Below are positions 45,191-47,726 of a stretch of 47,817 bases of DNA, piece after piece. The stretch is taken from positions 1 through 47,817 of the forward strand of contig JACIYH010000014.1 in assembly GCA_014360055.1 (NCBI GenBank), given 5' to 3'. How positions within the stretch are numbered: the first letter of the stretch is position 1; every line of letters begins with the position of its first letter. The translations under genes and the position numbers were made by a program. The DNA is from Bacillota bacterium (GTDB taxonomy: Bacteria > Bacillota > Sulfobacillia > JACIYH01). The notes under the pieces are model-generated. The model was not told the DNA's origin. It made no database searches and saw only the letters and a list, made by a program, of their open reading frames with translations.

Positions 45191-45667
45191 TTACGCCTCC
45201 AGGATGTCGTGCAGGAACTGGCGCAGATGCGGTTCCATCTCGAAATAATCTCGCCAGGTCTCCTCGAGGAACGTGCAGCGTTGCATCTCATCCCGCGTAA
45301 AGAGGAGTTCTCCCCGGGTGGCGTGATAACGGAGGGGAAGGGGGGCGTGATTGAGGACGGTCACGTCAACGGGGATCCCCACCAATGGGGTGAGCCCCGC
45401 GCCCAGCTTCGCCTCGTAGCGCCAGGGGTCCTGCTCCAGGTCCTTCCTGCCCGCATCCTCGTCAACCCAAACCGCGATGTCGATGTCCCTGAAGGGCAGT
45501 TTCTCCGCGAAGGAGCCGAATAAGTAAGCGAACACGATCTCCGGCCTGCGGGCGAGGGCGCCCTTGAGGGCGCGTTTAATGCTTGCCCGCCTGCCGCTGG
45601 ATACCGCGCCCGGTGTGCCCGCACCAGCCTTTCTATGTCTTGTCGCCCGCTTTCTTCTCAGTTCCAT
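45191..45667 (-). CDS. MNT-type nucleotidyltransferase (antitoxin-like)
   Basis: A 158-residue minimal nucleotidyltransferase. The core IVFAYLFGSFAEKLPFRDID then IAVWVDED gives the GS...DxD catalytic pattern, followed by PVDVTVLNHAPLPLRYHATR. Such proteins pair with HEPN RNases as antitoxins that AMPylate the toxin. ATG at 45667 is assumed; the frame stays open upstream and joins a HEPN-like fragment, so a fused start at GTG 45820 is possible. The complete HEPN partner is missing. It lies downstream of the TnpB-family gene on the same strand. Confidence 0.75.
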   Translation of the reverse strand: MELRRKRATRHRKAGAGTPGAVSSGRRASIKRALKGALARRPEIVFAYLFGSFAEKLPFRDIDIAVWVDEDAGRKDLEQDPWRYEAKLGAGLTPLVGIPVDVTVLNHAPLPLRYHATRGELLFTRDEMQRCTFLEETWRDYFEMEPHLRQFLHDILEA

Positions 45668-45689
45668 CCTCTTGCCTGCGCCCCAGGTA

Positions 45690-45820
45690 CTCTGCCACGA
45701 GCCATACTGGCGGAGGCGCGCCAGTGCATTGCGGATGTCGATCGTCTTCTCGCGGACGAGTTCCAAATTGATGGGAGCGACCGGGGCGCGCCCTGTAGGC
45801 TTACTCCCCAGGTAGTCCAC
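45690..45820 (-). pseudogene. HEPN (DUF86-like) toxin fragment
   Basis: After a GAGGAACG ribosome site, GTG 45820 opens a frame containing INLELVREKTIDIRNALARL then RQYGS, which resembles the first helix of DUF86/HEPN toxins. The next residues do not match. In another frame VAEYLGRRQEDGTEKKAGDKT (stop near 45628) could be the original tail. Most of the HEPN domain, including the RxxxxH active site, is absent, so the toxin is broken. Confidence 0.4.
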
Positions 45821-45833
45821 CGTTCCTCGAAAC

Positions 45834-47447
45834 TCAACAATAGTTGCAGTTACCTGCGCATTGCTGAGACGCCGGGCGAACAGCTCTCCCGACGGTTTGC
45901 GCCGGGGATTCCCACCCCGGGACCGGGGATAGACCATCACCGGGTGGGCCGTGCGGCCCGAAGACGGCCGTCCGTGCCACCCGGGATAGGGGTAGCCCCC
46001 TGCCCCGGCCTCTCTCGGAGAGACGCCGACCACATGCACCCTCGGCACGCAGCCTCCGGGATAGACGCCTCCAGTCACCCCAGACGTGCCTCGTGCGATT
46101 CCTCGCGGGTAGCACGAGGGCGGACCTGGACCGGAGACGCTCCCCAAACCCCAACCCCCGCCGGGCTATCGCCACCGCCGCCGCAGCATGGGGCGAAAGC
46201 CCGTAGCCGGGGCCAAACTTCACTTCCCCAATCACGCTGGTGAGGGCAGGGTCCCTCACTATCACCTCCACTCCCTCCCGCGCCGCCCGGGAATGGAGCA
46301 GGAGCCAGAACTTGCGGTAAGAAAAAGCCGAGAGCAGGCGGGCGTAACGGGGGTTCCTCTCCCGCAACTCCGCCTTCTTCTTTCCAAAGTCCAGTTCCTC
46401 CACCACGATGGGTATGCCCTCGGCTTTGGCCCACGCCACCGCCTCGGCCACGGCATCTCCCAGAGCAGCGGTGACCTGCACGCGCCTGCGGCCGTGAAGG
46501 CGGAGAGAAAGGTGCCGCCAGGCCACCGGGTTGCCGTACCGGTCCACCTGTGCCACCGCCAGCAAATGCGGGTTGAGATCCACCCCCAGGGCACCGCGGG
46601 CGGGATCGGTCACCAACGGAGAGGGAGACTGGTCCACGGTGGCGCCGAGGTACCACACCACCTTGCCTTTCTTCTGCCTGCGGAAGAAACAGTAGGTGAT
46701 GGCCTGGCCTGCGGAGATGGCATGGCGCAGCGCTTCCTCGCCCCGGCGAAAGCGCACCCCGCGTATCATCACCCAGCGGCCGAAGGTCGGCACCAGGCAG
46801 TCGGGTACCCTCAGCCGGATAGAGCCGTCGGGAAAGAGGGTGCAGGTCTGGTTCCCGGAGGTTTCCTCCCGAGAACCAAGACAGAGGAACCCGGAGGAAC
46901 GGGCAGAGTGCCACCTCTGCAGCCACTCTTCGCGCGAGGAGTAGCCGTTCTCCCCCAGGTGAAACTGGGCCCGGAAGAGCCGCCCCGAGCCAAAGCACAA
47001 GGGTGGTACCACCCGGTCAAGATCCGCCTCCACCCGGGCCAGCCTGGCCTTCAGGCAACCCAGGCGCCGCTTCTTCTGGTGGATCTGGAACCTGAGCCGC
47101 CACTTCGACCCCGGTGCCCAGGCGCGGCCCAGGCGGTCACCCAACTCAGCCAGCGAACCTTCCAGCGCGCGGATCTGGTTCCTAAGCGTGCGCAGGTGGC
47201 GCCGTTGTGACTCCCGGGCCGCCTTCACCTTGCCCTCCAGCACAAAAGCGACGGCGTTGAACATACGGGCGGTGATGCCGAACAGGGGCAGGTAGCGGCG
47301 CTTGCAGTCTGCCAGGGGCTCGCCCCGCACGCAGTGGTCACGGAACAGTGCCCGCTCCACGCGGCCAAACAGGGCGGCGAAGGCCTCCAGGAGAGGATAC
47401 AAAGACACGTCCTTGATTTTGGCTTCGAACGTCACCTTCACCGCCAC
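45834..47447 (-). CDS. TnpB-related protein (IS200/IS605 accessory type)
   Basis: A 537-residue RuvC-type nuclease-fold protein of the TnpB-related family common in thermophiles. N-terminal helical and coiled parts (about 1-150: SLYPLLEAFAALFGRVERAL, HQKKRRLGCLKARLARVEAD) are followed by LCFGSGRLFRAQFHL, WHSARSSGFLCLGSREETSG, RuvC-I GALGVDLNPHLLAVAQVD (Asp290), RuvC-II GIPIVVEELDFGKKK (Glu350/351) and a RuvC-III-like GLSPHAAAAVAIARRG. The four-cysteine zinc ribbon expected between RuvC-II and III is absent, and the third-motif Asp position holds His420. GTG at 47447 follows GGGAGG. Family similarity seems to fade near residue 440; the remaining C-terminus is Arg/Gly-rich over hairpin-forming DNA. 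No TnpA is adjacent. It may be a domesticated or RNA-guided protein. Confidence 0.82.
   Translation of the reverse strand: MAVKVTFEAKIKDVSLYPLLEAFAALFGRVERALFRDHCVRGEPLADCKRRYLPLFGITARMFNAVAFVLEGKVKAARESQRRHLRTLRNQIRALEGSLAELGDRLGRAWAPGSKWRLRFQIHQKKRRLGCLKARLARVEADLDRVVPPLCFGSGRLFRAQFHLGENGYSSREEWLQRWHSARSSGFLCLGSREETSGNQTCTLFPDGSIRLRVPDCLVPTFGRWVMIRGVRFRRGEEALRHAISAGQAITYCFFRRQKKGKVVWYLGATVDQSPSPLVTDPARGALGVDLNPHLLAVAQVDRYGNPVAWRHLSLRLHGRRRVQVTAALGDAVAEAVAWAKAEGIPIVVEELDFGKKKAELRERNPRYARLLSAFSYRKFWLLLHSRAAREGVEVIVRDPALTSVIGEVKFGPGYGLSPHAAAAVAIARRGLGFGERLRSRSALVLPARNRTRHVWGDWRRLSRRLRAEGACGRRLSERGRGRGLPLSRVARTAVFGPHGPPGDGLSPVPGWESPAQTVGRAVRPASQQCAGNCNYC
45902..46119 (-). ncRNA. structured RNA region at the tnpB 3' end (omega-RNA-like candidate)
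   Basis: Several perfect stems lie in series: CCTCGTGC/GCACGAGG (46089-46096 with 46112-46119), CCGGGTGG/CCACCCGG (45940-45947 with 45977-45984) with an alternative inner stem GGGCC/GGCCC (45946-45959), CCGGGG/CCCCGG (45902-45907 with 45915-45920) and GGGG/CCCC (45989-45999). TnpB guide RNAs are made from the 3' part of tnpB and run past its end, which is where these lie. High GC raises the chance of random stems, so this is a candidate only. Confidence 0.35.
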
Positions 47448-47608
47448 CGCACCTCCCGGTTGCACCAGGCCAGATGCTACCCCGGGGCCATCTCCACACA
47501 TCGGTTCGCCCCCACATCATACCAGGGGAGCGATCCCAATGTCAACACCTGTTCAGTGCGAATGTCGTTGCAAATATTGCTGGGAACAAACGGAGATTGT
47601 TGTCTATC

Positions 47609-47625
47609 TTGCTCGCTGCGAGCAA
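47609..47625. terminator. 7-bp hairpin downstream of tRNA-Leu
   Basis: TTGCTCG, a CTG loop, then CGAGCAA forms a perfect stem about 15 bases past the tRNA 3' end (read on the minus strand). There is no T-run after it, although five T residues precede it, so termination is uncertain. Confidence 0.35.
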
Positions 47626-47638
47626 CCCTCGAAAAACT

Positions 47639-47726
47639 TGGTGCCGGAGGTGGGAATCGAACCCACACGGGGATTGACCCCATCCGCTTTTGAGGCGGAC
47701 CCGTCTGCCTGTTCCAGCACTCCGGC
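47639..47726 (-). tRNA. tRNA-Leu (anticodon CAA)
   Basis: The minus strand reads acceptor GCCGGAG, a D arm with GGAACAGGCAGAC, anticodon stem TCCGC/GCGGA around the loop CTCAAAA (anticodon CAA), a long variable arm closed by GGGG/CCCC that makes it a type II tRNA, T arm GTGGGTTCGAATCCCAC, and CTCCGGC, discriminator A and an encoded CCA. It is 88 nt with CCA and reads UUG codons. The tnpB-like gene lies about 190 bp downstream. Confidence 0.97.

What the first reader, a model, noticed from the sequence alone, without database searches (positions are those of the whole stretch)
45834..47447. TnpB-family protein without a zinc ribbon and with His in place of the third RuvC Asp
RuvC-I (VDLN, Asp290) and RuvC-II (VVEELDF, Glu350/351) are intact. 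Where TnpB and Cas12 proteins carry a four-cysteine zinc ribbon and a DxNAA motif, this protein goes straight from DPALTSVIGEVKFG to GLSPHAAAAVAIARRG, placing His420 at the Asp position. As I recall, relatives in thermophiles share this His, so it may be a family trait rather than a mutation. Either the catalytic site is built differently or the protein is a nuclease-dead, RNA-guided DNA binder (compare TnpB-derived repressors). No TnpA is adjacent.
Basis: partly seen in the sequence, partly recalled or inferred. Interest (0 to 1): 0.7.

Follow-up and report, generated by a model that had tools for sequence, protein, structure and literature searches.

The report
IS607 TnpB with Asp-Glu-His nuclease site
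This gene is the RNA-guided TnpB protein of an IS607-type mobile element; it belongs to a widespread, zinc-ribbon-free TnpB lineage in which the third metal-binding Asp of the DNA-cutting site is a conserved His, and the guide RNA it most likely uses overlaps the end of its own gene.

Summary
In detail: D290 and E350 are intact, the zinc ribbon is absent and His420 sits at the third RuvC position (profile alignment to canonical TnpB). It is a family trait. In 110 related ORFs from many phyla D290, N292 and E350 are practically invariant. Position 420 is His in 66 of 86 tree rows; Asp (13) and Gly (7) occur only in one, almost wholly cyanobacterial, group. The scan that found the relatives did not select for His.

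The gene fills an IS607-type element bounded by GG, with empty sites for related copies; IS607 TnpA lies directly upstream in 32 relatives. The last ~65 codons overlap a ~205-nt right-end RNA with compensatory changes and a pseudoknot, found also 3' of relatives in other phyla and without a significant Rfam match. Its 3' end abuts host sequence, as a TnpB guide would.

Most likely an RNA-guided nuclease or nickase with a D-E-H site: His is the metal-A ligand at the equivalent place in Cas9 (H983) and several RuvCs. A nuclease-dead binder is less likely but untested; the Gly clade is the better dead candidate. No activity was measured, and the main TnpB census paper was not in the library.

The parts
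45820..47628 (-). Whole IS607-type element, left end (GG at 47628-47627, then GTTGC...) to right end (...GGAACGG, ending at 45820); ends exact to within one G of a G run
   Evidence: Homology between copies stops here at both ends while flanks differ; empty sites of two related insertions read through at GGG|T
45834..47447 (-). tnpB gene, 537 aa, zinc-ribbon-free, D-E-H RuvC
   Evidence: purifying selection in the core, dN/dS 0.17-0.46
46572..46580 (-). RuvC-I D290-x-N292 (practically invariant)
46398..46400 (-). RuvC-II E350
46188..46190 (-). RuvC-III His420 in place of Asp (Asp or Gly in one cyanobacterial group)
46191..46241 (-). Residues 403-419: short helical TS-IG-K linker where TnpB has its four-cysteine zinc ribbon
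   Evidence: (helix 403-415)
45820..46023 (-). Predicted right-end guide RNA scaffold (~205 nt) overlapping the last ~65 codons; loop CUGUUC pairs with 3'-terminal GAACGG (pseudoknot)
   Evidence: covariation; fewer synonymous changes in the tail; model R1 finds it 3' of distant relatives
45800..45819 (-). Predicted guide: host sequence flanking the right end (TGGACTACCTGGGGAGTAAG)
   Evidence: unrelated in each copy; only its own locus matches in the genome

Best explanation
The gene is the TnpB of a tnpB-only IS607-type element. Shown by sequence: element ends, TnpB homology, a family-wide D-E-H arrangement, and a conserved structured RNA that ends at the element's right end with variable host DNA behind it. 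Inferred: TnpB binds this RNA, is guided by the ~20 nt of flanking DNA to the matching empty site next to a GG(G) motif, and cuts or nicks it with D290, E350 and H420 holding the metal ions, His doing the metal-A job of the usual Asp. The break would let the element be copied back after loss. Movement now needs a TnpA supplied in trans.
For: D290, N292, E350 and H420 are conserved across phyla although relatives were found by a pattern that starts after position 420. H420 aligns with the TnpB Asp. The tree needs only two changes among H, D and G. AF2 model pLDDT 92.7, pTM 0.84; PDB matches are Cas12k, Cas12f, Cas12m. IS607 TnpA (MerR-type HTH + Resolvase) is upstream in 32 relatives. Core dN/dS 0.17-0.46. 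The right-end RNA covaries and occurs 3' of both His and Asp types. Literature: Cas9 H983 and Tth/Deinococcus RuvC His equal Asp138 of E. coli RuvC as metal ligand, and Cas9 H983D still cuts (PMC8112549, PMC9228767). SpuFz1 binds Mg through D383/N385 (PMC10432273), like D290/N292. IS607 TnpBs use G-rich TAMs, AGGAG or GAGGG (PMC11061315).
Against: Cas9 and RuvC carry a fourth carboxylate three residues after the His; here it is Ala, so only two carboxylates remain. Cas12m2, with His-Asp-Asp, does not cut (PMC10442227). The zinc ribbon, usual in TnpB, is gone. No RNA, binding or cleavage was measured. The AF2 pocket could not be inspected atom by atom.
Confidence: 0.65

Rival explanations
1. 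A natural nuclease-dead RNA-guided DNA binder: the D-E-H site holds metal and non-target strand without cutting, as in Cas12m2, and serves the element by blocking or marking sites.
For: Only two carboxylates; the non-canonical RuvC of Cas12m2 binds one Mg and does not cut (PMC10442227); a Gly clade tolerates loss of the third ligand beside intact D and E.
Against: Strict His conservation over long branches and exchange with the canonical Asp; the elements look like ordinary selfish IS607 elements, whose TnpB is expected to cut; the guide matches only its own flank.
Confidence: 0.23
2. A domesticated repressor like TldR, guided to a host or phage gene.
Against: Several divergent copies per genome with different flanks, intact D and E, no second match of the guide in the genome.
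Confidence: 0.04
3. A decaying, inactive copy of no function.
For: The genome has no IS607-like TnpA; several fragments at contig ends.
Against: Intact ORF, dN/dS 0.17 against the nearest relative, conserved RNA.
Confidence: 0.08

Closest known systems
IS607 TnpB guided by RAGATH-18-derived RNA (ISFba1, PMC11061315)
   Same: IS607 elements, TnpA upstream in relatives, right-end RNA of ~207 nt incl. guide, G-rich TAM, RuvC split in three
   Different: ISFba1 has D194-E290-D371; here D-E-H, no zinc ribbon, a ~460-aa core with a long coiled-coil stretch, and an RNA with no significant Rfam match
pro-Fanzor / Fanzor lineage (PMC10711439)
   Same: Another IS607 TnpB lineage with an altered RuvC site
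   Different: There the Glu moved next to the zinc finger; here Glu is canonical, the third Asp is His, and there is no zinc finger
Cas12m2 (PMC10442227)
   Same: His in a RuvC triad, TnpB-derived fold (8hhl)
   Different: His replaces the first Asp (HDD), zinc finger kept, CRISPR-linked, does not cut
Cas12k of type V-K CAST
   Same: Best Foldseek match (8ea3_O, E 4.6e-10); its sequence also shows no zinc ribbon there
   Different: Profile comparison weak (38.5%); RuvC residues lost; works with Tn7-like transposition
Cas9 / T. thermophilus and D. radiodurans RuvC
   Same: His as metal-A ligand at the same RuvC position (PMC8112549, PMC9228767)
   Different: They keep a fourth Asp three residues on; here Ala423

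Membership tests
IS607 TnpB | TnpB/Cas12 RuvC with D and E in order | tested here: met
IS607 TnpB | Third RuvC Asp | tested here: not met
   His420; a cyanobacterial clade of the same family has Asp there
IS607 TnpB | Four-cysteine zinc ribbon between RuvC-II and III (usual; 'many' members per PMC10711439) | tested here: not met
   absent between RuvC-II and III in all 33 representatives
IS607 TnpB | IS607 serine TnpA upstream | tested here: met
   In 32 family members, not in this copy
IS607 TnpB | GG core, no target duplication | tested here: met
   to within one G, on related copies
IS607 TnpB | Right-end guide RNA | tested here: met
   Structure by covariation; transcription not testable
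IS607 TnpB | RNA-guided DNA cleavage | not testable with these tools
   needs biochemistry
TldR (TnpB-derived repressor) | Lost RuvC residues, guide against a host or phage gene | tested here: not met
   D, E kept; guide matches only its own flank
Type V CRISPR effector | CRISPR array beside the gene | not tested
   No repeat search was run; the Rfam gathering scan of the window found only a tRNA
Cas12k | Profile homology above that to canonical TnpB | tested here: inconclusive
   38.5% against 96.2% for TnpB; Foldseek top hit

The most novel reading that the evidence does not exclude
An unrecognised, phylum-spanning IS607 TnpB class works as an RNA-guided DNA nuclease or nickase with an Asp-Glu-His metal site and no zinc ribbon, guided by its own RNA family, and includes a natural His/Asp/Gly series at the third ligand.
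Probability: 0.45. Interest if true: 0.75.

Novelty: new variant of a known kind. Interest (0 to 1): 0.6.

Why it matters
TnpB and Cas12 are taken to need three acidic residues. A family that spans phyla with His at the third place, and close relatives with Asp or Gly there, lets the role of that residue be tested in nature's own series, and may offer enzymes with other metal needs, nicking or binding behaviour. The conserved RNA and element ends make the test direct.

Tried and rejected
Cas12k kinship: best fold match but weak profile match, kept as a lead only. A cyanobacterial sub-profile did not hit Cas12k in PDB sequences. A Pfam scan of the single protein gave nothing. Rfam gave no guide-RNA family. 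The window insertion's own empty site was not clean: in two sister genomes the tRNA-Leu and pyk flanks lack both the element and most of the downstream nucleotidyltransferase region, so two other insertions were used. 'Solo tails' in several genomes are often at contig ends, not separate elements. The census of TnpB by Altae-Tran and colleagues (PNAS 2023) is not held; from memory it reports rearranged TnpB sites in several branches and may include this clade.

Full report
Observation. The ORF at 45834-47447 (-) is intact. The family profile aligned to canonical, zinc-ribbon TnpBs from related genomes puts H420 on the third RuvC Asp and leaves a gap for the ribbon. E350, not E351, is the invariant glutamate. 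Pfam finds nothing in the single protein; NCBIfam finds TnpB and Cas12f models below cut-off, ending just before the missing ribbon.

Family. Relatives were gathered from the sister genomes, from 84,980 species genomes and from viral contigs. The scan pattern AAA[VL][AVT]I[AG]RR[GA] lies after position 420, so His was not selected for. In 110 ORFs D290, N292 and E350 are invariant apart from one or two gapped or misaligned rows. Position 420 is H 75, D 17, G 15, with 3 gaps. In an 86-row tree built without that column the three states need two changes; D and G sit together in one group that is cyanobacterial but for one viral contig, H is everywhere else. The tree has no outgroup and long branches, so direction is unproven, though His on all deep branches suggests it is old.

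Why His can work. In SpCas9 H983, T. thermophilus RuvC H143 and the D. radiodurans RuvC His stand where E. coli RuvC has D138 and RNase H has D192, and hold metal A; Cas9 H983D still cuts, H983A is sharply reduced (PMC8112549, PMC9228767). In one-letter register, Cas9 H983-A-H-D986-A-Y, E. coli RuvC D138-A-A-D141-A-L and this protein H420-A-A-A423-A-V agree (my own reading, from remembered Cas9 and RuvC sequences). TnpB and Cas12 also lack the fourth acid, so this site is their D-E-D with His for the last Asp. N292, two residues after D290, is practically invariant; in SpuFz1 the matching D383/N385 both bind Mg (PMC10432273). Against: Cas12m2 with His-Asp-Asp is inactive (PMC10442227). I give about 0.65 to a cutting or nicking enzyme.

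Model. AlphaFold2 with 46 family sequences gave pLDDT 92.7, pTM 0.84; residues 403-415 form a helix where the ribbon would be and H420 opens the last RuvC helix. Foldseek's best solved matches are Cas12k, AsCas12f, Cas12f1 and Cas12m2; T. thermophilus RuvC also appears.

Element. Copies in the genome and its relatives share sequence from GGGTTGC (47628) to GGAACGG (45820) and differ outside. Two insertions in G002 have uninterrupted homologous sites in the window's genome (a NifX-like gene and a TetR-like gene, by my reading of the frames), with target GGG or GGGG followed by T, exact to within one G. GG cores without target duplication are IS607 behaviour; TnpA of that type lies upstream in 32 family members from many phyla, and beside copies in G019 and G001. 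The window genome has one Resolvase hit, in a 594-aa frame, and no Y1 TnpA; G056, in two contigs, has at least six copies and no Resolvase at all. So these copies are now stranded or moved in trans.

Guide RNA. Downstream of the RuvC core the DNA is conserved beyond coding need: synonymous divergence drops from 0.41 to 0.18, 0.71 to 0.26 and 1.64 to 0.47 in three pairs, and third positions lose their excess of change (one pair, L011-L036, shows little drop). On 24 sequences the named fold pairs 92% of cells with 136 double changes against 50 in shuffles. A model of the last 112 positions finds the RNA at the 3' side of tnpB in Thiocystis, Desulfobacterales, Chromatiaceae, Verrucomicrobia, Hormoscilla (Asp type) and viral contigs, E 1e-12 to 3e-6; it was not found in the more distant Streptomyces, Gly-type or Sulfobacillus-type loci searched. 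On these matches the hairpins and the CUGUUC/GAACGG pseudoknot covary, with the caution that this alignment was fitted to the model. What follows GAACGG is different in every copy and mostly starts with T or C, as expected for a guide. In the window it matches only itself. The base before the terminal GG is C at the right end but G at empty targets, which could let TnpB spare its own element; this is inference.

Known or new. IS607 TnpBs, their RNAs and TAMs are known (PMC11061315), and an IS607 lineage with a moved Glu is known (PMC10711439). In the papers I could read, no D-E-H, ribbon-free IS607 TnpB is described, but the main census was not available. I therefore call it a new variant of a known kind, with moderate interest.

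Noticed in passing
L048, L051, L052, L060, L064, L065, L071: Cyanobacterial clade with Gly at position 420 but intact D290, N292 and E350; L048 and L051 still sit next to an IS607 TnpA. The best natural nuclease-dead candidates in the family.
   Followed up: partly
L084-L114 (Streptomyces, Nonomuraea): Actinobacterial branch reads TRHDAAAVAIGRR: His420 followed by Asp421, on a long branch, mostly without TnpA upstream; could be domesticated.
   Followed up: no
L026 (G002:C6): Element with left end and right end but most of tnpB deleted, keeping the guide RNA: a possible guide-RNA-only non-autonomous copy inside a TetR-like gene.
   Followed up: partly
G056 (L010, L023, L035, L142-L144): Two-contig genome with six or more diverged copies and no serine recombinase of any kind.
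   Followed up: partly
window 45191-45816 (-): Nucleotidyltransferase (Polbeta/MNT) gene behind the element with a HEPN-like start, absent from the same place in two sister genomes.
   Followed up: no
window 47639-47726 (-): tRNA-Leu (CAA) gene ends about 10 nt before the element's left end.
   Followed up: no
model m67a44c6753ed vs 8ea3_O: Cas12k of V-K CAST is the best fold match; whether this ribbon-free family is near Cas12k's origin is open.
   Followed up: partly
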